The notes under the pieces were generated by a model. The model had not been told where the DNA came from. It saw nothing but the letters and a program-made list of their open reading frames with translations, and searched no databases. A stretch of 64,000 nt of DNA from Xanthomonas sp. NCPPB 1128 (GTDB taxonomy: Bacteria; Pseudomonadota; Gammaproteobacteria; Xanthomonadales; Xanthomonadaceae), in contig NZ_LFME01000018.1 in assembly GCF_001043115.1 (NCBI RefSeq), positions 1 through 64,000 of the forward strand, given 5' to 3'. Positions 49,614 to 63,951 of the stretch are shown one piece after another (position 1 is the first letter of the stretch; each line of letters begins with the position of its first letter). Position numbers and translations under genes: made by a program.

Positions 49614-52178
49614 TCACTCCGGTTTGCGCGGATCCAGCGAGATCAGCCGCGTCACGTCCAGCAGGGCGGCGGGCAGGTGCATGCCGCCGGGGGCGGCGAG
49701 GTAGCGGGTGCGCCAGGTGGGGGCGAACTTGGACTTGAAGCGGCGCAGGCCGGTGAAGCCGTAGAAGCGTTCGCCGTGGCGCACGATCAGGTTGCCGAAG
49801 CGGTTCCAGCGGCCGGCCAGGCGGTGCTGAGCCAGGCCCGACAGCGGCGCCATGCCCAGCGAGAAGCGCTTGTAGCCCTGGTCGCGGCCCCACAGGAACA
49901 GCTCGATGAACAGGAAGTCCATGGTGCCCTTCGGCGCGTCGGCGATGTGCCGCATCAGGTCCACCGACAGCCCGTGGCCGGCCGGGGCCTGCCACAGGTT
50001 GGCGAAGGCCACGACCTTGCCTTCGAACTCCACCACCGCGATCGGGAAGCGGCGCAGGTAGGCCGGGTCGAAGCTGCCCAGCGAGAAACCCTTCTCGGCA
50101 CCGGCCTTGTCTTCCAGCCACTGCTGCGAGACCTCGGCCAGCACCGGCATCAGCGCGTCCACCGCGTCGGGTTCGACGATGCGGAAGCTCAGCCCGCTAC
50201 GCTTGCCGCGGTTCCAGGCCTGGCGCAGGTCGGCGCGGTCGCGGCCCTCCAGGTGAAAGCCCTCCAGCGACACCATCGCTTCCTCGCCGAGCTTGACCAG
50301 GGTCAGGCCCAGGTCCAGGTAGGTCTGCCAGTGCTGCTCGCCGACCTGGTAGAACACCGGGCGCAGGCCCATGCGGTCGGCTTCCTCGCGGAAGCGCCAG
50401 ATCAGCGCGCGCGCCACCTCCGGCGCGCCGACCGGGTCGCCCATCGCCACCAGCGAGCCGCCGTAGCGCTGCATCATCACGAAACCCGGGCCGTCCTCGG
50501 CCTGCAGCAGCGCCTTGTCGCCGGTCAGCACCAGGCAGGCCTGGGTGTCGGTGGCCTGCGCCAGCACCGGCGCCAGCGCGTCCAGTTGCGCGCCATCGGC
50601 CGGCGGCAACGGCGAGCGGGTGCTGTGCAGCAACCGCGCCAGCCCGAACACCACCACCGCCACGCTGACCAGCAGCACCGCGCGCAGCGCACGCGGCGCG
50701 TTGGCCGAGGTGGCGAATTCCCACCACAGCTCGTTCTGGTATTCGACGTGGCTGTAGACGAAGAACAGCAGCCAGATCGTGGCGATCAACACCAGGCCGA
50801 GGTTGCGCAGCCAGGGCCACGACCAGGCCTCGTCGAGCAGGGCGCCCTCGCGGTAGAACTCGCGGCGCGCGCCCCACAGGCCGACCGCCACCACCAGCGA
50901 GGACAGCGCCACCGAGACATGGCCGCCGCGCAGCCAGGCCGGCAGCGGCAGCAGTACGCAGATGCCGATCGCCAGCACCCAGGCGGCATGGCTGCGCCGC
51001 TGCAGGCCCTGGCCGATCAGCAGCAGCACCACGCCGCCGAGGCTGGCCAGCAGGTGCGAGGTCTCCATGATCGACAGCGGCGCCATGTCCTGGCGGCGCT
51101 TGGGGGTGGGCAGGGTGCCGTCGATGACCAGCGCCGCGCCGACCGCGAACACCGCCAGGGCGATGATCTGCGGCAGCCACGGGCGCAGCGTGCGCCAGGC
51201 CACGCGCACGCCGCCGGCACCGGCGACCAGCGGCCGGCGCAGGCCGGACAGCGAGGCCATCAGCACCGACAGCAGCAGTGGCACCACGTAGTAGGTGATG
51301 CGGTAGATCAGCGCCGCCGCCAGCACCGCCGCCGGCGCCACGCCGGGCAACAGCTTGAGCAGGCTCCATTCGAACACGCCCAGGCCGGCCGGTACGGTCG
51401 AGACCAGGCCCGCCACCACCGCGACCAGATACAGGCCGACGAAGCCGATGTACTCGATGCCCGATTCGTTGGGCAGCAGCACGTAGAACGCGGCACTGGC
51501 CAGGCCCAGTTCGACCACGCTCAGCGCGGTCACGCCCAGGGTGGTGCGCCGGTCCGGCAGCCACAGCTCATGGCTGCGCCAGCGCAGGGTGCGGCCGTCG
51601 CGGCCGGCCAGCAGCAGCATCGTCGCGAAGCCGACCAGCAGCGCGATGCCGATCGCGCGTACCGCGGTCGCGCCGACCGGCAGCGCCAGCGCCGCCGCGG
51701 CCGGCTCCAGGGTCAGGGCCAGCGCCAGCAGCAGCCAGGCGCCGAACACGAAGCCCAGCGTGCTCATCAGCACCACCTGGCCGATCTCGGCCAGGCTCAG
51801 CCCGACCCGGCCGTAGCCGCGCAGGCGTACCGCGCCGCCGGTCAGCGCGGCGAAGCCCAGGGTCTGTCCGACCGCATGCGCCAGGAACGCGGTGATGCTG
51901 ATCCGCATCGGATGCAGCTTGCGGCCGCTGCGGCGCAGGCCGACGGCATCGAAGCCGATCAGGCAGGCGTAGCTGCTCAGGCCCAGCAGCAGGGTCAGCA
52001 CGATCTGGCTGAGGCTCAGTTGGTTGAAGGCGTGACGGATCGCGCTGTAGCCGTGGGTACTGAACTCCGTGGCCAGCGCATGCAGCGCCAGGGCCAGGAT
52101 CGCCAGGCTGGCCAGCACCGGCAGCGCACGGCGCCAGCCGGGAATGGGTGCGGGAGCGGAGGGCGCGGTGTCGGTCAT
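49614..52178 (-). CDS. mprF: Bifunctional lysylphosphatidylglycerol synthetase/flippase
   Basis: 854 aa. The N-terminal part has about 14 membrane helices (flippase type, with ITAFLAHAVGQTLGFAALTG and VPAGLGVFEWSLLKLLPG). From about 540 the soluble DUF2156 aminoacyltransferase domain follows (VLTGDKALLQAEDGPGFVMM, GDPVGAPEVARALIWRFREE, ending ISLDPRKPE). It transfers Lys or Ala from aminoacyl-tRNA to phosphatidylglycerol and flips the lipid, reducing surface negative charge and giving resistance to cationic peptides. The amino acid specificity is not decided. It is convergent with acvB. Confidence 0.95.
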   Translation of the reverse strand: MTDTAPSAPAPIPGWRRALPVLASLAILALALHALATEFSTHGYSAIRHAFNQLSLSQIVLTLLLGLSSYACLIGFDAVGLRRSGRKLHPMRISITAFLAHAVGQTLGFAALTGGAVRLRGYGRVGLSLAEIGQVVLMSTLGFVFGAWLLLALALTLEPAAAALALPVGATAVRAIGIALLVGFATMLLLAGRDGRTLRWRSHELWLPDRRTTLGVTALSVVELGLASAAFYVLLPNESGIEYIGFVGLYLVAVVAGLVSTVPAGLGVFEWSLLKLLPGVAPAAVLAAALIYRITYYVVPLLLSVLMASLSGLRRPLVAGAGGVRVAWRTLRPWLPQIIALAVFAVGAALVIDGTLPTPKRRQDMAPLSIMETSHLLASLGGVVLLLIGQGLQRRSHAAWVLAIGICVLLPLPAWLRGGHVSVALSSLVVAVGLWGARREFYREGALLDEAWSWPWLRNLGLVLIATIWLLFFVYSHVEYQNELWWEFATSANAPRALRAVLLVSVAVVVFGLARLLHSTRSPLPPADGAQLDALAPVLAQATDTQACLVLTGDKALLQAEDGPGFVMMQRYGGSLVAMGDPVGAPEVARALIWRFREEADRMGLRPVFYQVGEQHWQTYLDLGLTLVKLGEEAMVSLEGFHLEGRDRADLRQAWNRGKRSGLSFRIVEPDAVDALMPVLAEVSQQWLEDKAGAEKGFSLGSFDPAYLRRFPIAVVEFEGKVVAFANLWQAPAGHGLSVDLMRHIADAPKGTMDFLFIELFLWGRDQGYKRFSLGMAPLSGLAQHRLAGRWNRFGNLIVRHGERFYGFTGLRRFKSKFAPTWRTRYLAAPGGMHLPAALLDVTRLISLDPRKPE

Positions 52179-53372: not shown

Positions 53373-53713
53373 TCCAGCGTTTCGATACCGGCCCACGCAT
53401 GTCGGAGATGACCGTGCACAACGGCGTGGCCTATCTGGCCGGCCAGATCGCCGAGGACACCAGCGCCGACATCGCCGGCCAGACCCGCGAAGTGCTCGCT
53501 GCGATCGACCGGCTGCTGGCGCTCGCCGCCACCGACAAGAGCCGGATCCTGCGCGCCGAGATCTACATGACCGACCTGGCCGAGTTCGCCGAGATGAACA
53601 AGGTCTGGGAAGAATGGGTCAGCCCGGGCAACACCCCGGCCCGCGCCACCGTGCAGGCCAAGCTGGCCGACCCGGCCTGGAAGATCGAGATCGTGATTAC
53701 GGCGGCCGCTTGA
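53369..53713 (+). CDS. RidA family protein
   Basis: 114 aa, translationally coupled to the DUF998 gene (ATGA). Conserved core VAYLAGQIAEDTSADIAGQT, ILRAEIYMTDLAEFAEMNKV and the motif PARATVQAKLADPAWKIEIV. RidA proteins deaminate reactive enamine/imine intermediates. In the archetype an Arg (here in PARATV) binds the carboxylate, and it is conserved. Confidence 0.92.
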   Translation: MIQRFDTGPRMSEMTVHNGVAYLAGQIAEDTSADIAGQTREVLAAIDRLLALAATDKSRILRAEIYMTDLAEFAEMNKVWEEWVSPGNTPARATVQAKLADPAWKIEIVITAAA

Positions 53714-53940: not shown

Positions 53941-55017
53941 TCAGCGCCTGACGAACCGGTAATGCGCCACGCCCCACTGCTGGCCCTGTTCGTAGCCGAA
54001 CAGTTCCGCGCAGGCCATCCAGAACATGCGCCAGCGTTGCCACCAGATCTTGGCGTCGGCGCCGTAGGTGGCCTGCAGCACCGGCATCAGTGTGTCGCGG
54101 TGGCGGTCCTGGTTGTGCAGCCAGGCGTTGGCGGTCTTCTCGTAGTGCTGGCCGGACAGCAGCCAGCGGCGTTCGATCGCCAGGTCGTCCTGGAACTGCA
54201 GCAGGGTGTCGGCGGCCGGCATCAGGCCGCCGGTGAAGAAGTGCCGGCCCATCCAGTTGTCCTCGCCCTGCACCTCGAACGGGTAGGCCAGGTCGCGATG
54301 GCAGAAGATGTGCACGAACAGCCGTCCGCCCGGCACCAGCCAGTGGCTGACGCGCTTGAGCAGTTCGCGGTAGTTGCGCATGTGCTCGAACATCTCGATC
54401 GAGACCACGCGGTCGTAGCTCTCGGTCGGCAGGGTCAGGGTGTTGGCGTCGTGGGTGATCACCTTGACGTTGCTCAGCCCGCGCGCGCGGCATTGCGCTT
54501 CGATGTGCTCGCGCTGCGGCCGTGAGTTGGACACCGCGGTGATGCGCGCGCCGGGGAACTGCTCGGCCATCCACAGCGTCAGCGAGCCCCAGCCGCAACC
54601 CAGCTCGAGGATGCGCTGGCGGTCGCGCAACTGTGCGCGTTCGGCGTAGAGCTGCAGCATGCGTTCTTCGGCCGCGTCCAGGTCGGGCGTGCTCGCGTCC
54701 CAGTAGCAGCTGCTGTACTTCAGGCGCTTGCCCAGGCACAGCTCGAAGAAGCGTGGCGGTACTTCGTAGTGCTGGCGGTTGGCCGCATCCGTCTCGATCG
54801 CGATGGCGCTCTCGCGCAACGATTCGATCAGCAGGCGCTGGCGTTCCCAGGCTGCATCGGCGCCGCCGTCGCGCTCCTCGCGCAGGCGCTGTGCGCACAG
54901 CCGGCGCATCGCCGCGCGCAGCACGGCGTCGGGCAGCAGGCCGGATTCGGCCAGGCGCGTGCTCAGCGGCTCGGCCGGCGCGGCGGGCGGGGAAGAGGTG
55001 GCGAAGGTGCTGGACAT
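53941..55017 (-). CDS. Cfa/coclaurine-N-methyltransferase-like SAM methyltransferase
   Basis: 358 aa. SAM motif ILELGCGWGSLTLWMAEQF, then SNSRPQREHI, SIEMFEHMRNYRELLKR with Glu211, and FVHIFCHRDLAYPFE with His236. The segment EDNWMGRHFFTGGLMP is typical of the coclaurine N-methyltransferase branch of the cyclopropane-fatty-acid synthase superfamily. The position of the E. coli Cfa Cys139 is Ser103. It is the last gene of the lipid operon (22 bases after the DUF1295 gene). It may methylate an unsaturated lipid or an amine. Confidence 0.9.
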   Translation of the reverse strand: MSSTFATSSPPAAPAEPLSTRLAESGLLPDAVLRAAMRRLCAQRLREERDGGADAAWERQRLLIESLRESAIAIETDAANRQHYEVPPRFFELCLGKRLKYSSCYWDASTPDLDAAEERMLQLYAERAQLRDRQRILELGCGWGSLTLWMAEQFPGARITAVSNSRPQREHIEAQCRARGLSNVKVITHDANTLTLPTESYDRVVSIEMFEHMRNYRELLKRVSHWLVPGGRLFVHIFCHRDLAYPFEVQGEDNWMGRHFFTGGLMPAADTLLQFQDDLAIERRWLLSGQHYEKTANAWLHNQDRHRDTLMPVLQATYGADAKIWWQRWRMFWMACAELFGYEQGQQWGVAHYRFVRR

Positions 55018-55038
55018 GGCGGATCTCCTCGCGCGGGT

Positions 55039-55821
55039 TCAGTGCCGCGGCGGCATGGGGAAGAAGGCGCTGGTGCTGCGCTGGTAGTCGGCGTAGTCGC
55101 GGCCGCGCGAGCGCAGGGCTTGCTTTTCGGTGTAGGGAATGCCGGTGACGCGATAGAGGAAGGCGAACATCAGCAGCGGGCCCAGCGCGGCCACGCCGAC
55201 CCACAGCGCGCCGCTGCCCACCGCCAGGAACACGTAGGCGAACCAGTGCACGAATTCGAAGAAGTAGTTCGGATGCCGCGAATAGCGCCACAGGCCTTGG
55301 CGACAGGTCTTGCCCTTGTTCGATGGATCGGCGCGGAACGCGGCCAGTTGCCGGTCGGCCAGGCTTTCCCCGCCCACCGCGACCAGCCAGGTCGCCACCG
55401 CCAGCGTGGTCCACACGCTCCACTGCGGTTGCGGATTGTGCGCGGCCACCGACAGCGGCACCGCGAATGCCAGCACCACCAGCGCCTGGCCGAGGAAGAA
55501 CGCCAGGAACTTGCGCTGGTCGCCGTGCCAGTGCTCGCGCAGGGCGCGATAGCGGCCGTCCTCGTGCGTATCGCCGAACACGCGCACGCCCAGGTGCCAG
55601 GCCAGGCGCGCGCCCCACAGCCCGCCCAACGCGGCGGTCAGCACGCGCGGCAGCAGCGCGCCGTCGGCGCGCCAGGCGCAGTACACCGCGGTCAGCGCCA
55701 TGCACGCCGACCACAGCACATCGACCACGCCGGCATTGCGGGTCTGCCGCTGCCAGGCCCAGCCGGCGAGCATGACCAGCACGGTGAACACGCCCACGTG
55801 CAGCAGCGGCCAGGCGTTCAT
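55039..55821 (-). CDS. DUF1295 (steroid-5-alpha-reductase-like) membrane protein
   Basis: 260 aa from the ATG at 55821, overlapping the DUF2878 gene by 4 bases. Six or seven membrane helices with the signature GLWRYSRHPNYFFEFVHWFA near the C-terminus, in the style of isoprenylcysteine-methyltransferase and steroid-reductase-like enzymes, ending IPYTEKQALRSRGRDYADYQ. The conserved RHPNY segment binds a nucleotide cofactor in relatives. In this operon it may reduce a double bond in the modified fatty acid (inference). Confidence 0.88.
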   Translation of the reverse strand: MNAWPLLHVGVFTVLVMLAGWAWQRQTRNAGVVDVLWSACMALTAVYCAWRADGALLPRVLTAALGGLWGARLAWHLGVRVFGDTHEDGRYRALREHWHGDQRKFLAFFLGQALVVLAFAVPLSVAAHNPQPQWSVWTTLAVATWLVAVGGESLADRQLAAFRADPSNKGKTCRQGLWRYSRHPNYFFEFVHWFAYVFLAVGSGALWVGVAALGPLLMFAFLYRVTGIPYTEKQALRSRGRDYADYQRSTSAFFPMPPRH

Positions 55822-56363
55822 CGCGCTGCTCCGGTTGCGGGCAGTGCCGGCGTGGCGGCGATCACGCGGCGCGTCGCCAGGCTCAGCAGGGTCAGCGCCG
55901 CGGCCCAGCCGACGGCCAGCGCCAGCAGCGCCTGCGGCAAGGGCTGCGTCAGCGTCACCGCCTGCCAGCCGCGCGCGGCCAGCACATAGCCCAGCGGGCC
56001 GGCGGTGGCACCGAACAGCGCCGCACGCCAGGGATGGCGCATCACCCAGGCCAGCGAATGCTGGAAGGTCAGGGCGAAGCCGGCCCACAGCGCCAGGATC
56101 CACAACGGCGGCCACGGCGCCGGCGGCGCGGCGGCGTAGCGCACCCAGTCGCCGGCGCGCATGGCGGCATCCACGCCGGCGCCCAGTGGCAACGCCAGGG
56201 CGATCAGTGCGGCGTCGCCGCGGGCGCGGCGGCGCGGCCACAACTGGTACAGCGCGAACAGCGCCAGCGCCGCCGGGCCGGCCCAGGCCAGCCCGTGCGC
56301 GGCGCCGACCACCGCGGCCAGCCACAGCCCCTGCAGGGCCAGGTAGTTGATCAGGTTGCTCAT
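55818..56363 (-). CDS. DUF2878 family membrane protein
   Basis: 181 aa with about five membrane helices (WLAAVVGAAHGLAWAGPAAL, ALALPLGAGVDAAMRAGDWV, PPLWILALWAGFALTFQHSL, WRAALFGATAGPLGYVLAAR). It overlaps the genes on both sides by 4 bases. The family is known only from clusters of this kind, next to Cfa-like methyltransferases and DUF1295 proteins. No catalytic motif recognised. Confidence 0.85.
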   Translation of the reverse strand: MSNLINYLALQGLWLAAVVGAAHGLAWAGPAALALFALYQLWPRRRARGDAALIALALPLGAGVDAAMRAGDWVRYAAAPPAPWPPLWILALWAGFALTFQHSLAWVMRHPWRAALFGATAGPLGYVLAARGWQAVTLTQPLPQALLALAVGWAAALTLLSLATRRVIAATPALPATGAAR

Positions 56364-57673
56364 GCGTCACCTGCCAGCGCCGGCGCGAACTGCGCCGGCC
56401 GTGCGCGCGGCTTGCTCAGCCACAGGTGCACGTCGCCGATCGAGCGCTCCAGGAAGCCGCCTTCGCAGTAGGCCAGGTAGAACTCCCACATGCGGATGAA
56501 GCGTTCGTCGTAGCCGAGCGCGCGCACCTGCGGCAGTTTGGCCATGAAGCGCTCGCGCCAGGCGCGCAGGGTCAGCGCGTAGCTGGGGCCGATGTCCTCC
56601 AGATTGAACAGGCGCAGGTCGCTGGCGCGGGCGATCGCCCCGGTCATCGCCGCCACCGAGGGGATGAAGCTGCCCGGGAAGATGTGGCGCTTGATGAAGT
56701 CCACCGACGTGAGCGCCTGCGCGTAGCGGTGATCCTCGATGGTGATGGCCTGGATCAGCGCCTGGCCGTCGTCCTTGAGCAGGCTGCCGACCTTGCCGAA
56801 GTAGGTATCCAGGTACTGGTGGCCGATCGCCTCGATCATCTCGATCGACACCAGGCGGTCGTAGCGGCCGTCGAGATCGCGGTAGTCGCGCAGCAGCACC
56901 TCGACCCGGTCCGACAGCCCGGCGGCGGCGATGCGCTGCCGCGCCAGTTCGTACTGCTCGCGCGAGATGGTGGTGGTGGTGACGCGGCAGCCGTGGTGCT
57001 TGGCGGCATACAGTGCGAAGCCGCCCCAGCCGGTGCCGATCTCGACCAGGTGATGGTGCGGCTGCAGGTCGAGCTTGGCGCAGATGCGCTGCAGCTTGCG
57101 TTCGGCGGCGCGTTCCAGCGCGGCCTCGCCCAACGCGGCGTCGGCATCGCGGAAGATCGCCGAGGAGTACATCAGGTTGCGATCCAGGAACAGTTCGAAC
57201 AACTGGTTGCCCAGGTCGTAGTGCGCGGCGATGTTGCGGCGGCTGCCGGCGCGGGTATTGCGCGCGAACGCGTGCAGGCCGCGCATCGCCAGGCCGCCGA
57301 ATCGGGCCAGGCCGGTCTCCATCGCGTCCAGGCGGTCGCGGTTGCGCACCAGCAGGCGCACCAGCGCGACCAGGTCGTCGCAGTCCCACAGCCCGTCCAT
57401 GTACGCCTCGCCGACGCCGACGCTGCCGTTGAGCGCGGCCTGGCGATAGAAGCGCGGGTCGTGGATGCGCAGATGCGCCTGCAGCGTGTCGGCGCCAGCA
57501 GCGGCATCGCCCAGCGTGGTCAGCGTGCCGGCCTCCTCGATGCGCAACTGGCCCTCGCGCAGGCCGTCCAGCGTGGCGAGCAGGCGTTGCCGCAGCAGGC
57601 GGTCGAGCCCGCGCAGCGGCGGTGCGGCAGGGGTCAGCGCGGCGGCGGAAGAGGGCGCGTGCGGAGCGTTCAT
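56360..57673 (-). CDS. Cfa-like fatty-acid methyltransferase lacking bicarbonate ligands
   Basis: 437 aa from the ATG at 57673. An N-terminal lipid-binding domain (about 1-145) is followed by the SAM-binding core with AAHYDLGNQLFELFLDRN, EIGTGWGGFALYAAKH and SIEMIEAIGHQYLDTYF. Compared with E. coli Cfa by eye, Cys139 is Ser171 (LMYSSAIF) and His266 is Gln308 (ALIQAIT), while Glu239 (Glu281) and Tyr317 (Tyr365) are kept. The protein can likely transfer a methyl group to a double bond, but may not form a cyclopropane. Methyl-branched or furan-precursor products are possible. Confidence 0.93.
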   Translation of the reverse strand: MNAPHAPSSAAALTPAAPPLRGLDRLLRQRLLATLDGLREGQLRIEEAGTLTTLGDAAAGADTLQAHLRIHDPRFYRQAALNGSVGVGEAYMDGLWDCDDLVALVRLLVRNRDRLDAMETGLARFGGLAMRGLHAFARNTRAGSRRNIAAHYDLGNQLFELFLDRNLMYSSAIFRDADAALGEAALERAAERKLQRICAKLDLQPHHHLVEIGTGWGGFALYAAKHHGCRVTTTTISREQYELARQRIAAAGLSDRVEVLLRDYRDLDGRYDRLVSIEMIEAIGHQYLDTYFGKVGSLLKDDGQALIQAITIEDHRYAQALTSVDFIKRHIFPGSFIPSVAAMTGAIARASDLRLFNLEDIGPSYALTLRAWRERFMAKLPQVRALGYDERFIRMWEFYLAYCEGGFLERSIGDVHLWLSKPRARPAQFAPALAGDA

Positions 57674-58539
57674 CGGCGTTCTCGCGGAAGGGAATGGTCG
57701 GGGTGGTCGTGCACCGGGTTGCCGCGCAGCCACAGCCGCAGGGCCTGCCAGTGGATCTTGGCCATGACCTGCAGGGTCATCGCCGGATAGCGCAGCAACG
57801 CCTGCGCCAGGCTGGCGCCGTCGAGGGCGCTGCGCTGCAGCACCAGGGTGGCGTCGAAGCGCCTCCGCGTGGCTGCGGGCGCGGGATCGAGCACGTCCAT
57901 GTGCACGCGCAGGTGCGCGCCGGGTTCGCTGAAGCGCCAGGCGTAGGTGTGCGCCATCGCCATGAACGGCGACACATGGAAGCGCTTGGCGAAGCGCCAT
58001 GCATGCGTGATGCCGTGGCTGCGCGCCTCCGCCATCGGCAGCACGTAGGCGTGGCGCTGCCGCCACGGCGTGTTGGTGATCTCGGCGACGATGCTGTGCA
58101 GGCGCTGCTGCGCGTCGTGGCAGTAGTAGAACGTGACCGGATTGAAGCAGTGGCCGAAGTAGCGCAGGTGGGTGAGCATGCGCACCGGGCCGAGCGGGCG
58201 CTCGCCGGTGTGCTGCTGCACGCGGTCGCGCACTGCCTCGTCCAGTGGTTGCGTAGGGTCGCCCAGGTAATCGCTGCGGCGGAACTCGGCCACGTTGCGC
58301 CGGTTCACCGACCACAGCCAGCGCCGCGCGAACACCTGCTCCAGCTCGCCCAGGTCCAGGTACAGCAGGAACAGCGGATAGCGGAACGCCAGCGCCTTGG
58401 GCGCGTAGCGGCGATGCCGCACCCAGCCGGTGTACATGGCGCTGTGCAGGCCATGCAAGGTCGTGCCCGCCGCCGCCGACGTTGTCGAGACGGCGCCAGC
58501 CGGCGGGGCGGGCACGGCAGCACGGTGCATCGAGGTCAT
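57670..58539 (-). CDS. DUF1365 family protein
   Basis: 289 aa from the ATG at 58539. Contains LRYFGHCFNPVTFYYCHDAQ, YVLPMAEARSHGITHAWRF and a C-terminal stretch with LRVHMDVLDPAPAATRRRFD. DUF1365 proteins almost always sit between an FAD oxidoreductase gene and a Cfa-like gene. They are beta-rich, probably lipid-related. Both ends overlap the neighbours by 4 bases, so it is part of one translation-coupled unit. Confidence 0.92.
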   Translation of the reverse strand: MTSMHRAAVPAPPAGAVSTTSAAAGTTLHGLHSAMYTGWVRHRRYAPKALAFRYPLFLLYLDLGELEQVFARRWLWSVNRRNVAEFRRSDYLGDPTQPLDEAVRDRVQQHTGERPLGPVRMLTHLRYFGHCFNPVTFYYCHDAQQRLHSIVAEITNTPWRQRHAYVLPMAEARSHGITHAWRFAKRFHVSPFMAMAHTYAWRFSEPGAHLRVHMDVLDPAPAATRRRFDATLVLQRSALDGASLAQALLRYPAMTLQVMAKIHWQALRLWLRGNPVHDHPDHSLPRERR

Positions 58540-59789
58540 GACCAGGGTACCCCCAGCGCGGCGGCCACGTCGACCGCGCTGCGCAGGCCGTCTTCGTGGA
58601 AGCCGAAGCCCCAGCCGGCACCGGCGAACCAGGTGTTGCGCTGGCCCTGGATCTCGTCCTTGCGCGCCTGTGCCGCCACCGACGCCTGGGTCTGCAGCGG
58701 ATGCCGGTAGCGCATGCGCCGCAGCACCTTGGCCGGATCGATCGCATCGCTGCGGTTGAGGCTGACGATGAACGGCTGCGGCGCCTGCAGCGACTGCAGT
58801 GCGTTCATCCAGTAGCTGACCGTGCACGGCGCGTCCGGATCGGCCGGCACGTGCGCGTTCCACGCGGCCCAGGCGCGGCGGTCGCGCGGCAGCACGCGCG
58901 CGTCGGTGTGCAGTACGGTCTCGTTGTCCTGGTAGCCGATCGCGCCGAGGATCGCGGTTTCGGCGTCGCTGGGATCGGTCAGCAGGCGCAGCGCGTCATC
59001 GGCGTGGCAGGCCAGCACCGCATGGTCGTATTGCTGGGTGTCGGCATCGCAGGCGATCGCGACGCTGCCGTGCGCGGTGCGCTGCACCGCGCGCACCGGC
59101 GTGCCCAGCCGCTCGCGCACGCGCCAGCGGCTGCGCAGCGCGCGCACGTAGCTGTTGGAGCCGCCGCGCACCACCTGCCACTGCGGGCGGCCGCTGACCT
59201 GCAGCATGTGGTGGTTGGCCATGAAGCCGATCAACTGGCGCATCGGGAAGTCGAGGATCTGCCGCGAGGGCGAGGACCACAGCGCCGAGGCCATCGGCAC
59301 CAGGTGCGCGTCGCGGAATACCTGGGAGTAGCGGTGGCGCTGCAGGAATTCGCCGAGGGTCAGTTGCGCCAGGGTGGCGTCGTGCAGCGCCTGTGGCGCC
59401 TCCCGGTAGAACCGCCGCAGGTCGCGCAGCATGCGCCAGAAGCGCGGTGACAGCAGGTTGCGGCGCTGGCAGAACAGGCCGTCTAGGGTGCCGGCGTTGT
59501 ACTCCAGCCCGGTGCGTTCCTCATGCACCGAGAAGCTCATCGTGGTCGGCTGCGACTCGACCCCGAGCCGCGCGAACAACGCGCTCAGCAGCGGGTAGTG
59601 CTGCGGATTGAACACGATGAAGCCGCTGTCCACCGCGTATTCCACGCCCTCCAGTTCGATCGCATGGGTATGGGTATGGCCGCCGAGATAGTCGGCCGCT
59701 TCGTACAGCGTCACCTCGTGACGCTGCGACAGCAGCCACGCCGCGCCGAGGCCGGCGATCCCCGAGCCAACCACCGCGATCCGGCTCAT
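58536..59789 (-). CDS. FAD-dependent oxidoreductase (lipid operon, UfaO-like context)
   Basis: 417 aa. N-terminal dinucleotide fold VVGSGIAGLGAAWLLSQRHE, then EAADYLGGHTHTHAIELEG in the amine-oxidase/NAD(P)-binding family, and a C-terminal FAD motif WFAGAGWGFGFHEDGLRSAV. The Rhodobacter homologue in the sigma-E regulon takes part in oxidising methylated fatty acids to furan fatty acids. The same gene order here suggests an equivalent role, but no activity has been shown for this protein. It follows the desaturase with a 4-bp overlap. Confidence 0.9.
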   Translation of the reverse strand: MSRIAVVGSGIAGLGAAWLLSQRHEVTLYEAADYLGGHTHTHAIELEGVEYAVDSGFIVFNPQHYPLLSALFARLGVESQPTTMSFSVHEERTGLEYNAGTLDGLFCQRRNLLSPRFWRMLRDLRRFYREAPQALHDATLAQLTLGEFLQRHRYSQVFRDAHLVPMASALWSSPSRQILDFPMRQLIGFMANHHMLQVSGRPQWQVVRGGSNSYVRALRSRWRVRERLGTPVRAVQRTAHGSVAIACDADTQQYDHAVLACHADDALRLLTDPSDAETAILGAIGYQDNETVLHTDARVLPRDRRAWAAWNAHVPADPDAPCTVSYWMNALQSLQAPQPFIVSLNRSDAIDPAKVLRRMRYRHPLQTQASVAAQARKDEIQGQRNTWFAGAGWGFGFHEDGLRSAVDVAAALGVPWS

Positions 59790-60727
59790 CGGGCACGCGC
59801 CTGTGCACGTACCAGCCCGGCCGGCACCGGCTTGAGCTCACGGATCATGCGGGTCCACGACAGCGCCTTCAGTCCATACCAGGTCAGGTCCAGTTCCCAC
59901 CAGCGGAAGCCCTGGCGCGCGGCGCCGGGGAAGAAATGGTGGTTGTTGTGCCAGCCTTCGCCGAAGGTCAGCAGCGCCAGCCACAGGTTGTTGCGGCTGT
60001 CGTCGCGGGTGTCGAAGCGGCGGCTGCCGAAGCGGTGCGCCAGCGAGTTGATGGTGAAGGTGGCATGGAACAGCGCCACGGTGGAGACGAAGAAACCCCA
60101 CACCAGCAACTGCGGGCCATCGGTGCCGAGCTGCGGCACGTGCTGCTGCAGCCACTCGCCGAGCAGGAACAGCGCCAGCGCCAGCAGCACCGGCAGCAGC
60201 AGGTCGAAACGATCGAGGAAGCGCAGTTCGGGAAAGCGGCGCAGATCCGGGATCGCCTCCCAATCGGTGCGGAAGCCGCGCGGAGTCAGGAACCAGCCGC
60301 TATGGCTCCACCAGAAACCGTGCTGGCGCGGCGAATGCGGATCGGCCGGGGTGTCGGTGTGGCGATGATGGTTGCGGTGGTGCGCGGCCCACCACAGCGG
60401 CCCGCGCTGCACGCAGGTGGCGCCGATCGCGGCGAACAGGAACTGCACCGGGCGCGAGGTCTTGAATGCGCGGTGGGCGAAATAGCGGTGGTAGAAGCCG
60501 GTGAGCGCGAACATGCGCACCGCGTACATCGCCACGGCCATGCCAACGGCGAACCACGATACACCGACCCAGAACACGCCCAGGCAGGCCAGGTGCAGGC
60601 CGATGTAGGGCGCGGCGCGCAGCCAGTCGATGCGGTCGGCGCGTGCCGGATCGAGTTCGATCTCGGCGCTTGTGTCGAACCAGCGCCGCAGGGTGCGCAG
60701 GATGCGGCTGCGCTGCGCAGGCGGCAT
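59786..60727 (-). CDS. Membrane acyl-lipid/acyl-CoA delta-9-type desaturase
   Basis: 313 aa from the ATG at 60727; a GTG 12 codons upstream (60763) is an alternative. Four membrane helices and three histidine boxes: HRYFAH (80-85), HHRNHH (116-121) and HNNHH (about 265). These bind the di-iron centre of the stearoyl-CoA-desaturase family. It makes a cis double bond in acyl chains using O2. As the first gene of the operon it may supply the unsaturated substrate for the downstream methyltransferases. Ribosome site unclear. Confidence 0.92.
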   Translation of the reverse strand: MPPAQRSRILRTLRRWFDTSAEIELDPARADRIDWLRAAPYIGLHLACLGVFWVGVSWFAVGMAVAMYAVRMFALTGFYHRYFAHRAFKTSRPVQFLFAAIGATCVQRGPLWWAAHHRNHHRHTDTPADPHSPRQHGFWWSHSGWFLTPRGFRTDWEAIPDLRRFPELRFLDRFDLLLPVLLALALFLLGEWLQQHVPQLGTDGPQLLVWGFFVSTVALFHATFTINSLAHRFGSRRFDTRDDSRNNLWLALLTFGEGWHNNHHFFPGAARQGFRWWELDLTWYGLKALSWTRMIRELKPVPAGLVRAQARAR

Positions 60728-60812
60728 TGTGGAATGGGAGCGTTCCGGAACGGGACTCGGCACAAGCGCGTCTCATTGGGGGACTTGGGGAGCGATACGG
60801 GCGAAACCGGAA

Positions 60813-60838
60813 GACGGATGCACCCGCGTCGCATTTCC
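60813..60838 (-). promoter_or_regulatory. Candidate ECF-type promoter for the lipid operon
   Basis: On the minus strand GGAAAT (60838-60833), a 16-nt spacer and CGTC (60816-60813) lie about 50-85 nt upstream of the first gene. The two blocks resemble ECF sigma-factor promoters (GGAAC type and CGTC). The local sigma gene at 61997-62554 is the obvious candidate to recognise it. This is a motif match by eye. Confidence 0.3.
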
Positions 60839-61211: not shown

Positions 61212-62000
61212 CTACGGCGCCAGTTGCAGCGTGCTGATGCCGCCCTTGGCCACGACCGGGCCGGTGGCGACGCCGCCGGGCGCGCCGCCGGGCGGTTCCA
61301 TGGTCACCGCCAGCACCGCGCCGTCGCTGAGCAAGGGCATCAGCGCATCGGGGATGCGCGACACGCGCGCCTTGGCCTCGTCGAACACGCCCATCGAGCG
61401 CGCCTTGCCGTCGGCCGGGATTAGCCACAGTTCGGGCACGCGCGCGCTATCGCGATTGTCGCCCAGCGGGGTGAGGGTGATGCTGCGCTTGTCGGCATCC
61501 ATCAGCGCCACGTAGCCGGGCTTGCCGTCGTCCTGCATCAGCGTGGAGGTCATCGCGATGCCGCTGGGCTTGGGCGTGGTGGTGGCCACCGGCGGCGGCT
61601 GCGCGGCCGGCGGCGGCACCGGCGCACGCGCCAGCAGCAGTGCCAGCAGGCAGGCGGTGGCGGTGGCGAAGCCGCCGGCGCTGAGCCAGCGCCAGGTCCG
61701 CACGCTGTCCCAGAATCCGGGCGCGGCGGGCCGCGCGCGCGGCGCCGGCGCATCCAGGCCCAGCGAGGCGCGGATGCGCACCCACACGCGCTCGGGCACC
61801 GCCACCGGGGCGATCTCGTCGGCCAGCGGCATCAGGTGCTGCTGCCACTGCAGCACCGCTGCGGCGAACTCGTGGTCGCTGTCGATGCGCGCCTCGGCAG
61901 CGCGGCGCTCCTGCGCGTCGAGCACGCCGAGCACGTATTCGCCGGCCAGCACGTCGCGCGGCGGCGGGGTTTCCTGCGGATCGGGCACGGAGGCGTTCAT
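61212..62000 (-). CDS. Membrane anti-sigma factor, RskA-like
   Basis: 262 aa from the ATG at 62000, which overlaps the sigma gene stop (ATGA); an upstream start at 62012 is possible. The N-terminal anti-sigma domain (about 1-75: EYVLGVLDAQERRAAEARID) lacks the HxxxCxxC zinc motif of ChrR. One membrane helix (about 103-124) is followed by a periplasmic C-terminal RskA-type domain (YVALMDADKRSITLTPLGDN, LWLIPADGKARSMGVFDEAK). The signal is probably periplasmic, acting by regulated proteolysis. Confidence 0.9.
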   Translation of the reverse strand: MNASVPDPQETPPPRDVLAGEYVLGVLDAQERRAAEARIDSDHEFAAAVLQWQQHLMPLADEIAPVAVPERVWVRIRASLGLDAPAPRARPAAPGFWDSVRTWRWLSAGGFATATACLLALLLARAPVPPPAAQPPPVATTTPKPSGIAMTSTLMQDDGKPGYVALMDADKRSITLTPLGDNRDSARVPELWLIPADGKARSMGVFDEAKARVSRIPDALMPLLSDGAVLAVTMEPPGGAPGGVATGPVVAKGGISTLQLAP

Positions 62001-62554
62001 CGTTCCAGGCACGCTTTCAGTTTGGCCAGACCGCGGCGGATCCAGCTCTTGACCGTGCCCAGCGGCGTGCCGCTGCGGTGCGCCAGTTCCTCATAGGTGA
62101 TGCCTTCGAAGAACGCGGTGCGGATCAGCTCGCCGCGCGGCGGCTCCAGTTCGCCCATGCACACGTCCAGGCGCCGGCCGGCCACCCGCCACTCGGTGTC
62201 GGCGAGCGGATCGCGGCCTTCGTCCTGCAGCTCGCCGGCGTCGTCCAGCGCCACCGATTGCCGCGCCGGGGCGCGTGCGCGCAGATGATCGATGGCCTTG
62301 TTGCGCGCGATCATGGTCAGCCAGGTCAGGCCGCGCGCGCGCTGCGGGTCGAACTGCCCGGCCTTGCGCCAGACCGACGAGAACACGTCCTGCAGCACGT
62401 CCTCGGCCTCGCCACGCTGCGGCACGATGCGCAGGCACACGCCGAACAGGCGCGAGGCGGTGGCGCGGTACAGGCGTTCGAACGCGGCGCTGTCGCCGGC
62501 GGCGGTGGCGACCAGCAATTGTCCTGCTTCGTCGTGATCGGGCGACTCGGTCAT
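61997..62554 (-). CDS. ECF (RpoE-like) sigma factor
   Basis: 185 aa from the ATG at 62554. Region 2 has DVLQDVFSSVWRKAGQFD and LTWLTMIARNKAIDHLR; region 4 has YEELAHRSGTPLGTVKSWIR. There is no region 3 beyond a short linker (DDAGELQDEGRDPLADTE). It is translationally coupled to the anti-sigma gene, so the pair is one regulatory unit. Expected to drive its own promoter and, by analogy with Rhodobacter sigma-E, the lipid operon downstream. Confidence 0.93.
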   Translation of the reverse strand: MTESPDHDEAGQLLVATAAGDSAAFERLYRATASRLFGVCLRIVPQRGEAEDVLQDVFSSVWRKAGQFDPQRARGLTWLTMIARNKAIDHLRARAPARQSVALDDAGELQDEGRDPLADTEWRVAGRRLDVCMGELEPPRGELIRTAFFEGITYEELAHRSGTPLGTVKSWIRRGLAKLKACLER

Positions 62555-62612: not shown

Positions 62613-62984
62613 TCAGGCGCGCTGGCGCCGCCACAGCACGAGGGCGATGAGCAGCAGGACGATCTCGAACGCGGCCAGGCCGCTCGTGCTCGGGCCCACC
62701 GGCCACAGCCGCAGCAGGCTGGCGCTGCGGTAGAGCACGATGGGCACGTAGAACGCCAGCGCCAGGAGCAGGCCGGTGCGCAGTTGCCCGGTGCGGGCGA
62801 AGTAGCCGAACAGGAAGGCCATGCCCAACTGCAGGCCGCCGTAGATGACCAGGTATTCGGACTGGCCGGAGCGGTCCAGGCCGACATAGCCCACCGCTGC
62901 GGCGGTCTGCGCCGGCAGCAGCGTGCACCAGACGGCCAGGAGCGCGTACAGCGCGGCGTTGAACCACAGGTAGGCCTTGGCCAT
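62613..62984 (-). CDS. Small four-helix membrane protein, DUF4345-like
   Basis: 123 aa from the ATG at 62984. Four membrane helices (YLWFNAALYALLAVWCTLLP, YLVIYGGLQLGMAFLFGYF, GLLLALAFYVPIVLYRSASL, AAFEIVLLLIALVLW). The pattern fits DUF4345. It lies 58 bases upstream of the sigma gene in the same orientation and may belong to the same transcript. The function is unknown. Confidence 0.8.
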   Translation of the reverse strand: MAKAYLWFNAALYALLAVWCTLLPAQTAAAVGYVGLDRSGQSEYLVIYGGLQLGMAFLFGYFARTGQLRTGLLLALAFYVPIVLYRSASLLRLWPVGPSTSGLAAFEIVLLLIALVLWRRQRA

Positions 62985-63072: not shown

Positions 63073-63861
63073 TCAGCGCGCGCTGCATTGCGCGACCAGC
63101 GGTTGCTGCAACGCCTGTTGCCAGGCGCCATCGTCGGCCTGGCCGCGCAAGCGTTCGGGAAACTCGATGCGCACGTTCGGGTAGCGGCCGCGCGCATCGC
63201 GGATATTGCCGACGCCGCGGAATTCGAGCAGACGCCGGTCCTTGCGTGCGTAGGCGACGCTGAGGTCGGGCAGCAGCGTGCCGTACCAGGCGGCCAGGCT
63301 CAGGGTGTAGCGCTGCACCTCGGCAGCGGCCGGGCCAGGGGTGATGCGAAAGTCGAGCGTGCGCAGTTCGCTGGGCAGTACGAAGGCGATCTGCTGCGGT
63401 GCGCCGTTGCCCAGGCTGTCCCAGCGCTGGCGCAGGTAGGCGTCGAAGCCGGCGTCGATCACCTGTGCCTCGGCGCTCTTCGGCAGCGGCGCGCGGCGTT
63501 CGGCCTGGCCCCTGGCCTGGCTGAACATCTCGCGCCCGCTGCCGTTGCGGCGCACGCCTTCGCGGTAGCCGCTGCGCGCATCGACCAGTTCGAAGGCCGG
63601 CGCGGCGCTGCCGTCGTCCACGCGCTTGCGCGCGAACGCGGCGCCATCGGCGCACTGGTACAGCACCAAGCGTGCGCCATCCTCGCGCACCCAGTGGCTT
63701 TCGCGGTACAGCACTTGCTTACTATCGGCGGCATAGGCGATGCCCTCGTAGTGCAGCATCGCCTTGGCCGGCGCGGCGGCGACGAGCGCGGCGGCGCCCA
63801 GAGCCAGGGCCAGCGGCAGGGACGGTCGGGTGAGCGGGAAGGCGGCGGTCGACGTCGGCAT
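63073..63861 (-). CDS. Secreted protein of unknown function
   Basis: 262 aa from the ATG at 63861, which has GGAGCG upstream; a longer frame begins at 63894. Signal peptide LPLALALGAAALVAAAPAKA, then a beta-rich domain: MLHYEGIAYAADSKQVLYRE, ESHWVREDGARLVLYQCADG, IAFVLPSELRTLDFRI. I do not recognise the family. It lies 88 bases upstream of the DUF4345-like gene. Confidence 0.75.
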   Translation of the reverse strand: MPTSTAAFPLTRPSLPLALALGAAALVAAAPAKAMLHYEGIAYAADSKQVLYRESHWVREDGARLVLYQCADGAAFARKRVDDGSAAPAFELVDARSGYREGVRRNGSGREMFSQARGQAERRAPLPKSAEAQVIDAGFDAYLRQRWDSLGNGAPQQIAFVLPSELRTLDFRITPGPAAAEVQRYTLSLAAWYGTLLPDLSVAYARKDRRLLEFRGVGNIRDARGRYPNVRIEFPERLRGQADDGAWQQALQQPLVAQCSAR

Positions 63862-63951
63862 GCACGGCGCTCCGGTGGGATGACACCAGGACATACGCGG
63901 CCGGCGCCGATCCGGATGCGCCCGCGGTGGCGGCCGCGCTGCGCGGGCGTC

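What the first reader, a model, noticed from the sequence alone, without database searches (positions are those of the whole stretch)
53941..60763. Seven-gene lipid-modification operon with coupled reading frames
Desaturase, FAD oxidoreductase, DUF1365, Cfa-like, DUF2878, DUF1295 and a second Cfa/CNMT-like methyltransferase follow each other on one strand. Five of six junctions are 4-bp overlaps and one is a 22-base gap, so they are almost certainly co-expressed. Desaturase plus methyltransferase plus oxidoreductase is the logic of a route to methylated or furan fatty acids, as in the Rhodobacter sigma-E genes. The DUF2878 and DUF1295 members have no known step and are the new part.
Basis: partly seen in the sequence, partly recalled or inferred. 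Interest (0 to 1): 0.85.

Follow-up and report, generated by a model that had tools for sequence, protein, structure and literature searches.

The report
Furan fatty acid operon with two extras
Seven linked bacterial genes most likely build light-protective furan fatty acids in the cell membrane; four match enzymes already known, and two unexplained membrane proteins turn out to keep company with those enzymes in many other bacteria.

Summary
The seven genes are real, collinear and minus-strand; five junctions are ATGA overlaps, the sixth gap is 21 bases, not 22. The furan idea holds, but roles change. By homology, order and an active-site signature, gene 2 (FAD) is UfaD, gene 3 (DUF1365) UfaO, gene 4 UfaM, and gene 7 the FufM type, the methylase that makes dimethyl-furan fatty acid. 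The diiron desaturase (gene 1) is not the published furan-pathway desaturase. DUF1295 lies within 500 bp of FufM in 62 of 80 named loci (chosen by FufM likeness), 22 of them in a row ufaD, sigma, DUF1295, fufM. It folds like sterol reductases rather than methyltransferases, and a DUF1295 gene is listed with singlet-oxygen genes of Chlamydomonas. DUF2878 directly follows UfaM or FufM in 34 of 40 class-sampled loci. Regulation differs from Rhodobacter: a SigK-like sigma and RskA-type anti-sigma lie upstream, and one ECF-type promoter pattern precedes both operons in 8 of 8 genomes searched. No chemistry exists for this strain. New variant of a known kind.

The parts
59786..60763 (-). Gene 1: membrane fatty-acid desaturase (three His boxes), probably supplies or adds a cis double bond; not UfaD
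   Evidence: Pfam FA_desaturase; His boxes HRYFAH, HHRNHH, HNNHH in the sequence; these His are conserved at 97% or more in 32 rows
58536..59789 (-). Gene 2: UfaD homologue (FAD-dependent methyl-fatty-acyl desaturase)
   Evidence: Amino_oxidase/NAD_binding_8; 45-46% identity to the Rhodopseudomonas gene beside DUF1365 and Cfa
57670..58539 (-). Gene 3: UfaO homologue (DUF1365; furan-ring oxygen insertion)
   Evidence: DUF1365 283 bits; 34-38% identity to Rhodopseudomonas; UfaO described as DUF1365
56360..57673 (-). Gene 4: UfaM homologue (SAM-dependent methylase of the monoene chain)
   Evidence: CMAS; tree with Rhodopseudomonas UfaM; H266 to Q and C139 to S against E. coli Cfa
55818..56363 (-). 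Gene 5: DUF2878 small membrane protein that follows the pathway's methylases
   Evidence: DUF2878 139.5 bits; neighbour counts; model pLDDT 94.7
55039..55821 (-). Gene 6: DUF1295 membrane protein with steroid-reductase-like fold, HPNYFFE subtype, companion of FufM
   Evidence: DUF1295 249 bits and Steroid_dh 34.8 bits; fold; linkage
53941..55017 (-). Gene 7: FufM-type methylase (second methyl, furan ring), related to plant coclaurine N-methyltransferases
   Evidence: 50-51% identity to Rhodopseudomonas copies; PDB best hit 6gkv
60795..60821 (-). Predicted ECF-type promoter GCATCC-N16-CGTAT of the seven-gene operon
   Evidence: present in 12 of 12 aligned upstream regions and in 8 of 8 genomes searched
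61212..62000 (-). RskA-type anti-sigma factor
   Evidence: Pfam RskA_C 71 bits over cut-off 29.4
61997..62554 (-). ECF sigma factor, SigK-like, with counterparts of both SigK redox cysteines (C132, C182)
   Evidence: PDB best hit SigK 4nqw, R. sphaeroides RpoE close behind; cysteine positions
62613..62984 (-). DUF4345-like membrane protein in the sigma operon
   Evidence: 22.6 bits, below Pfam cut-off 26.5
63073..63861 (-). Exported-looking protein of unknown family, first gene of the sigma operon (start codon chosen by me)
   Evidence: ORF; no Pfam match at E 0.1
63893..63919 (-). Second copy of the ECF-type promoter pattern, ahead of the sigma operon (suggests autoregulation)
   Evidence: same pattern with alike downstream sequence in 8 of 8 genomes searched

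Best explanation
The operon encodes a complete route to membrane furan fatty acids (FuFA), including the dimethyl form. Inferred sequence: the gene-1 desaturase supplies or adds a cis double bond; UfaM (gene 4) methylates the monoene chain on phospholipid; UfaD (gene 2) adds a conjugated double bond; UfaO (gene 3) inserts O2-derived oxygen to close the furan; FufM (gene 7) adds the second ring methyl. The UfaM, UfaD, UfaO and FufM steps were shown by others in Rhodobacter and Rhodopseudomonas; here they rest on homology, order and an active-site signature. DUF1295 (gene 6) is probably an NADPH-dependent double-bond reductase that serves the same product, and DUF2878 (gene 5) a membrane partner of the two methylases; both are inference. 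Expression is probably switched by the upstream SigK-like sigma and RskA-type pair, which probably also controls itself.
For: Known chemistry: PMC7380195, passages. Window proteins against four genomes of the genus that holds R. palustris JSC-3b: UfaD 45-46%, UfaO 34-38%, UfaM 42%, gene 7 50-51%, DUF1295 40-43%. Gene 4 groups with ufaO-linked Cfa, SH-aLRT 99, apart from plain Cfa. The place of H266 of E. coli Cfa is Q in 73 of 73 ufaO-linked proteins and H in 4 of 4 others. In those four genomes the CMAS members above 50 bits are UfaM, at most one plain Cfa, and one gene-7 type. Of 16 genomes searched for DUF1365, 9 of 10 with gene 7 have it and 0 of 6 without gene 7. In 23 of 80 named loci ufaD diverges from sigma and fufM, 22 with DUF1295; the anti-sigma there is ChrR in 3 of 3 scanned. 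Acinetobacter plasmid pYH12138-1 carries desaturase-FAD-DUF1365-Cfa-DUF1295-methyltransferase in this order. Conserved promoter pattern.
Against: No lipid data for this organism; a search for furan fatty acid with Xanthomonas listed two papers whose titles do not concern it (listing only). RPA0924 itself was not fetched; its identity with the gene-7 type is by exclusion in other Rhodopseudomonas genomes. FufM alone made the dimethyl product in R. sphaeroides and in vitro, so DUF1295 is not needed for that step. DUF1295 is missing within 500 bp in 18 of 80 named and 6 of 18 phylum-sampled FufM loci. One gene-7 genome (G321) has no DUF1365. Nine of 40 class-sampled DUF2878 loci have UfaD-UfaO-UfaM without FufM or DUF1295, and 5 of 40 hold none of the pathway genes. 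DUF2878 is absent from all 80 named stretches.
Confidence: 0.8

Rival explanations
1. The operon makes saturated methyl-branched fatty acids (as in mycobacterial 10-methylstearate), with the FAD protein or DUF1295 reducing a methylene intermediate; no furan is formed.
For: DUF1295 has a reductase-like fold. The mycobacterial SigK locus holds UfaA1 with SigK and RskA (PMC10540498, passages).
Against: DUF1365 (UfaO) is present, and the role published for UfaO is furan formation. The FAD protein is of the UfaD type; that the 10-methyl reductases belong to another FAD family is recalled, not tested.
Confidence: 0.1
2. It is an ordinary cyclopropane fatty-acid operon under stress control.
For: Two CMAS-family members.
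Against: The bicarbonate ligands of Cfa (C139, H266; numbering and role recalled) are S and Q in gene 4; Q is found in 73 of 73 ufaO-linked proteins, S in 61 of 73 (5 keep C). The UfaD/UfaO set is not explained.
Confidence: 0.04
3. DUF1295 is an ICMT-like methyltransferase that methylates the acyl chain or its carboxylate.
For: Weak ICMT similarity in Pfam (22.1 bits, below cut-off 24) and one PDB sequence match to ICMT at E 0.19.
Against: Fold search ranks delta14-sterol reductase (4quv) and two steroid 5-alpha-reductase entries first (probability 1.00); ICMT 5vg9 reaches 0.28. Steroid_dh is over its Pfam cut-off. No match reached E 0.001 in the fold search.
Confidence: 0.12
4. DUF1295 and DUF2878 are unrelated passengers of the operon.
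For: Neither is named in the published reconstructions (0 occurrences in PMC7380195), which made FuFA from UfaM, UfaD, UfaO and FufM.
Against: DUF1295 lies next to FufM in alpha- and gammaproteobacteria and on one Burkholderia and one Acinetobacter plasmid looked at; two DUF1295 subtypes are paired with FufM, and a single clade of linked DUF1295 is rejected; DUF2878 directly follows a pathway methylase in 34 of 40 class-sampled loci.
Confidence: 0.1

Closest known systems
Rhodopseudomonas palustris RPA2571-2570-2569 (ufaD-ufaO-ufaM) and RPA0924 (fufM); PMC7380195, passages
   Same: Same four enzymes and the same D-O-M order; in 4 of 4 Rhodopseudomonas genomes searched the fufM-type gene follows a DUF1295 gene
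   Different: There the genes lie at two places, and no desaturase or DUF2878 was seen in the stretches fetched; here all are in one seven-gene operon
Rhodobacter sphaeroides RSP1091-1087 plus RSP2144 under sigma-E/ChrR; PMC7380195, passages
   Same: UfaD and UfaO in a stress-controlled operon
   Different: UfaM lies elsewhere, no FufM is reported in the passages seen, ChrR instead of an RskA-type anti-sigma; its sequences were not fetched
Mycobacterial sigK locus (PMC10540498 and PMC7509140, passages only)
   Same: SigK/RskA-type pair next to UfaA1 and genes of unknown function; the detailed gene families there are recalled, not tested
   Different: No FufM, desaturase or DUF2878 recalled there; no fasciclin-like Pfam match among the 11 window proteins of the two operons scanned
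Aeromonas salmonicida cluster (PMC10012899, passages) and Vibrio cholerae VC1123 (PMC12971978, one passage)
   Same: Aeromonas: SDR-FAD-DUF1365-cfa-DUF2878 in a row; Vibrio: a DUF2878 gene
   Different: No FufM or DUF1295 in the passages seen; the Vibrio gene is placed in the MerR-type PhrR regulon
Acinetobacter plasmid pYH12138-1 cluster
   Same: Desaturase-FAD-DUF1365-Cfa-DUF1295-methyltransferase in this order
   Different: No DUF2878 annotated; plasmid-borne, with a photolyase-family gene about 2 kb upstream

Membership tests
FuFA pathway (UfaD/UfaO/UfaM/FufM) | UfaD-type FAD protein directly followed by DUF1365 (UfaO) and a Cfa-family gene (UfaM) | tested here: met
   order; identities 45-46, 34-38 and 42% to four Rhodopseudomonas genomes
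FuFA pathway (UfaD/UfaO/UfaM/FufM) | gene 4 is UfaM, not plain Cfa | tested here: met
   tree (few plain Cfa in it) and H-to-Q signature, Q in 73 of 73 ufaO-linked against 0 of 4 others
FuFA pathway (UfaD/UfaO/UfaM/FufM) | gene 7 is orthologous to FufM (RPA0924) | tested here: met
   50-51% to the single gene-7 type in 4 of 4 Rhodopseudomonas genomes; RPA0924 itself not fetched, so by exclusion
FuFA pathway (UfaD/UfaO/UfaM/FufM) | methyl monoene, methyl diene and furan chains in phospholipid | not testable with these tools
   needs GC-MS
FuFA pathway (UfaD/UfaO/UfaM/FufM) | control by RpoE with ChrR (as in Rhodobacter) | tested here: not met
   adjacent anti-sigma is RskA-type; ChrR is found in alphaproteobacterial loci, 3 of 3 scanned
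Cyclopropane fatty acid synthase (gene 4) | C139 and H266 bicarbonate ligands (roles recalled) | tested here: not met
   S and Q in the window protein
SigK/RskA (ECF18/19) | the two cysteines 133 and 183 of SigK | tested here: met
   C132 aligns with a SigK cysteine in the 4nqw alignment that I take for C133; C182 lies 50 residues on, as C183 does, beyond the end of that alignment
SigK/RskA (ECF18/19) | adjacent RskA-family anti-sigma factor | tested here: met
   RskA_C 71 bits; no PDB sequence match at E 1
SigK/RskA (ECF18/19) | NCBIfam SigK cut-off | tested here: not met
   125 bits against 226; the only specific model passed is PRK12534, a sigma factor of no stated role (331.9 against 267)
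Steroid 5-alpha-reductase / sterol reductase fold (gene 6) | fold and family profile | tested here: met
   Foldseek probability 1.00, TM about 0.5, E 0.003-0.03; Steroid_dh 34.8 bits over 22.6
Steroid 5-alpha-reductase / sterol reductase fold (gene 6) | NADPH-dependent reductase activity | not testable with these tools
   needs enzyme assay

The most novel reading that the evidence does not exclude
DUF1295 is a missing component of the furan-fatty-acid system in bacteria and algae: when the furan traps singlet oxygen it opens to a reactive ene-dione (chemistry recalled), and DUF1295, a membrane reductase of the 5-alpha-reductase fold, reduces that conjugated double bond with NADPH, disarming the spent lipid. 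DUF2878 would dock the methylases to the membrane.
Probability: 0.2. Interest if true: 0.8.

Novelty: new variant of a known kind. Interest (0 to 1): 0.58.

Why it matters
Furan fatty acids are thought to protect membranes from damaging agents such as singlet oxygen and occur in plants and fish as well as bacteria; what becomes of them after they react is, as far as I know, open. A conserved reductase-like companion of FufM gives that question a gene to test. A DUF1295 gene is listed with CFA1, DUF1365 and CFA2 (labelled coclaurine N-methyltransferase in another table) among SAK1-dependent singlet-oxygen genes of a green alga (PMC4067076, table passages). FufM relatives also occur on plasmids, and the genes stand beside at least two kinds of ECF switch, so the same chemistry appears to have been recruited repeatedly.

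Tried and rejected
Rejected: reading gene 1 as the furan-pathway desaturase (UfaD is the FAD protein). Rejected: gene 4 as plain Cfa. Rejected as the likelier reading: DUF1295 as ICMT-like. Not settled: whether DUF1295 was recruited to FufM twice. The linked DUF1295s do not form one clade (AU p 0.0015, 48 rows against 8, two long rows left out beforehand), but ancient linkage with later loss would also give that; the FF-type clade has weak support in that tree (56/58), while in the larger tree a starred branch (96/99) parts the FF type plus two unlinked FAE rows from the rest. L131 is a true exception in arrangement; L114 was labelled DOWN only because the script used the open frame's start (it is upstream). 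DUF2878 fold search gave nothing significant; best were UreF (E 1.2) and a mycobacterial Insig homologue (E 1.3, probability 0.54). In the DUF1295 fold search a chain of a chloroplast motor complex (8xku_G) also had probability 0.99 at E 0.35; not pursued. A third recurring promoter-pattern hit (G000 C1:104586) lies within a long frame on the other strand and was not pursued. The named scan kept the best 80 of 582 relatives by likeness to a Rhodopseudomonas gene, so its proportions are not a random sample; two of the named loci duplicate unnamed ones. In one search the sigma profile matches both sigma kinds, so its sigma count is not type-specific. Close congeners inflate the 73. The DUF2878 stretches fetched were the better-scoring ones, and several are cut at contig ends. 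Instead I looked for DUF1295 in four papers's list: 0 occurrences in PMC7380195, PMC10940516, PMC12089945 and PMC12712439.
Full report
Observation. Seven ORFs lie head to tail on the minus strand at 53941-60763. From the sequence and a script, five junctions are ATGA overlaps and the gap before gene 7 is 21 bases. Pfam confirms each family. The order is the same in 11 relatives of the same genus; in 10 of them genes 1-5 all end in ATGA, in one (L018) three do. Another congener, G008, has neither a gene-7 orthologue nor DUF1365. The genus is not named by a tool; I take it to be Xanthomonas-like from recall, with one Xanthomonas record among 25 plasmid records with partial matches.

Gene roles. 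PMC7380195 (passages; outline) shows that UfaM methylates cis-vaccenate, UfaD (an FAD/NAD protein) desaturates the methylated chain, UfaO (a DUF1365 protein) is needed for O2-dependent furan formation, and FufM (RPA0924) adds the second methyl. In R. palustris the first three are RPA2571-2570-2569. In all four I find FAD-DUF1365-Cfa in a row and a DUF1295-gene-7 pair elsewhere. Window proteins are 45-46% (FAD), 34-38% (DUF1365), 42% (Cfa), 50-51% (gene 7) and 40-43% (DUF1295) identical to these. The paper reports 26% identity of RPA0924 and 38% of RPA3082 to R. sphaeroides UfaM; against Rhodopseudomonas UfaM the gene-7 type is 28-32% over short local alignments and the plain Cfa 31-35% over long ones. 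The CMAS members above 50 bits are UfaM, the gene-7 type and, in two of four genomes, a plain Cfa; one weak hit per genome (42-45 bits) is left aside. So gene 7 is FufM by exclusion. Of 16 genomes searched for DUF1365, 9 of 10 with gene 7 have it and 0 of 6 without.

UfaM versus Cfa. Gene 4 lies with the ufaO-linked proteins, Rhodopseudomonas UfaM included, on one side of a branch with SH-aLRT 99, against plain Cfa (the root is unknown, and the other side holds only two plain Cfa and the second Cfa of one locus). Aligned to E. coli Cfa (6bqc), the positions of C139 and H266 (numbers and roles recalled) are S and Q. Q stands at the second position in 73 of 73 ufaO-linked proteins and H in 4 of 4 others; at the first, S 61, A 7, C 5 of 73, and C in 4 of 4 others. 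Close relatives are among the 73.

DUF1295. Of 80 named loci kept, 62 have DUF1295 within 500 bp of the FufM type, 61 of these upstream on the same strand; 48 of 80 have UfaD or UfaO within 8 kb. In the phylum sample the counts are 12 of 18 and 10 of 18. Eighteen of 80 and 6 of 18 lack it within 500 bp. In 23 of 80 named loci ufaD on one strand is followed by a sigma gene and fufM on the other, 22 of them with DUF1295; the anti-sigma gene between passes the ChrR cut-off in 3 of 3 loci scanned. Over all profiled loci with both genes within 3 kb, upstream copies carry HPNYFF(E/Q) in 98 of 101 and downstream copies HPNYFG(E/N/D) in 17 of 18 (close relatives and two duplicates included). In a class sample of 114 genomes with 23 DUF1295 matches, the FF motif appears in four of the 19 loci that the script printed, all four beside the FufM type, the window's own among them. 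A single clade of all FufM-linked DUF1295 is rejected, AU p 0.0015; this suits two separate pairings but could also reflect ancient linkage with loss. The model (pLDDT 96.8) matches delta14-sterol reductase 4quv and steroid 5-alpha-reductases 7bw1 and 7c83 with probability 1.00, E 0.003-0.03 and TM about 0.5; ICMT reaches 0.28. A DUF1295 gene, a DUF1365 gene, CFA1 and CFA2 (the latter labelled coclaurine N-methyltransferase in another table) are listed as SAK1-dependent singlet-oxygen genes in Chlamydomonas (PMC4067076, table passages); I could not test that these algal genes are orthologues. In the held library the terms DUF1295 and singlet oxygen meet only in that paper. No search joined DUF1295 with furan fatty acid, but four furan papers's list do not contain the word. 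PMC7380195 made an RPA0923 deletion; its main text names that gene only in the strain and plasmid tables.

DUF2878. In 40 class-sampled stretches its immediate upstream same-strand neighbour among the profiled genes is UfaM in 20 and FufM in 14; 5 have none and 1 is a split match. With the other sets, 11 close congeners included, the count is 52 of 61. Nine of the 40 stretches hold UfaD-UfaO-UfaM without FufM or DUF1295, and 5 hold none of the other pathway genes. It is absent from all 80 named stretches. In the class it occurs in 46 of 274 genomes; the 40 stretches cover 41 of 48 match rows, the better-scoring ones. The model is a confident helical protein (pLDDT 94.7) with no significant fold match. 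I infer a membrane partner of the methylases.

Regulation. Upstream lie a sigma gene with SigK as best PDB match (84.7 bits, closely followed by R. sphaeroides RpoE, 80.7) and an RskA-type gene. Both SigK redox cysteines have counterparts, C132 and C182, the second by position beyond the alignment's end; PMC7509140 (passages) describes their role. NCBIfam's SigK cut-off is not reached. GCATCC-N16-CGTAT lies upstream of gene 1 in 12 of 12 aligned regions. In eight genomes (own and seven congeners) the pattern has 32 hits, 16 of them being this site and a second one ahead of the sigma operon in each genome; the backward control gave 4. In the window both sites end 32 bases before the start codon, the one at 63861 being my choice. 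Sigma and RskA genes were seen in 10 of 11 fetched congeners; in the eleventh the stretch began too late to tell.

Mobility. Relatives of gene 7 occur in 44 plasmid records at E 1e-60; two were looked at. An Acinetobacter plasmid carries counterparts of six of the seven genes in the same order, and a conjugative Burkholderia plasmid carries sigma, anti-sigma, DUF1295, methyltransferase, lipocalin, FAD protein, DUF1365 and Cfa.

Verdict. The operon is a new variant of the known furan-fatty-acid system, complete for the dimethyl product by homology, with DUF1295 and DUF2878 as specific companions and a different sigma switch. The roles of the companions, and the product in this organism, remain to be shown.

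Noticed in passing
63073-63861 (-): Exported-looking 262-residue protein without Pfam match at E 0.1, first gene of the sigma operon behind the second promoter copy
   Followed up: partly
L266 (pYH12138-1) and L267 (Burkholderia anthina plasmid): Furan fatty acid gene clusters on a mobilizable and a conjugative plasmid, the first with a photolyase-family gene nearby
   Followed up: partly
alignment: H266 to Q as a possible general marker that separates UfaM from cyclopropane synthases
   Followed up: partly
49614-52178 (-): Large MprF-like membrane protein beyond the operon's far end (sequence impression only, not scanned)
   Followed up: no
53375-53713 (+): RidA-family gene (PF01042) converging on the operon end
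   Followed up: no
L144, L153, L161, L169, L181: RskA-type anti-sigma genes also lie near FufM in these five named loci; L153 has two sigma matches
   Followed up: no
G000 C1:104586: Third promoter-like pattern hit, with alike hits in five of the seven congeners searched, within a long frame on the other strand in the own genome
   Followed up: partly
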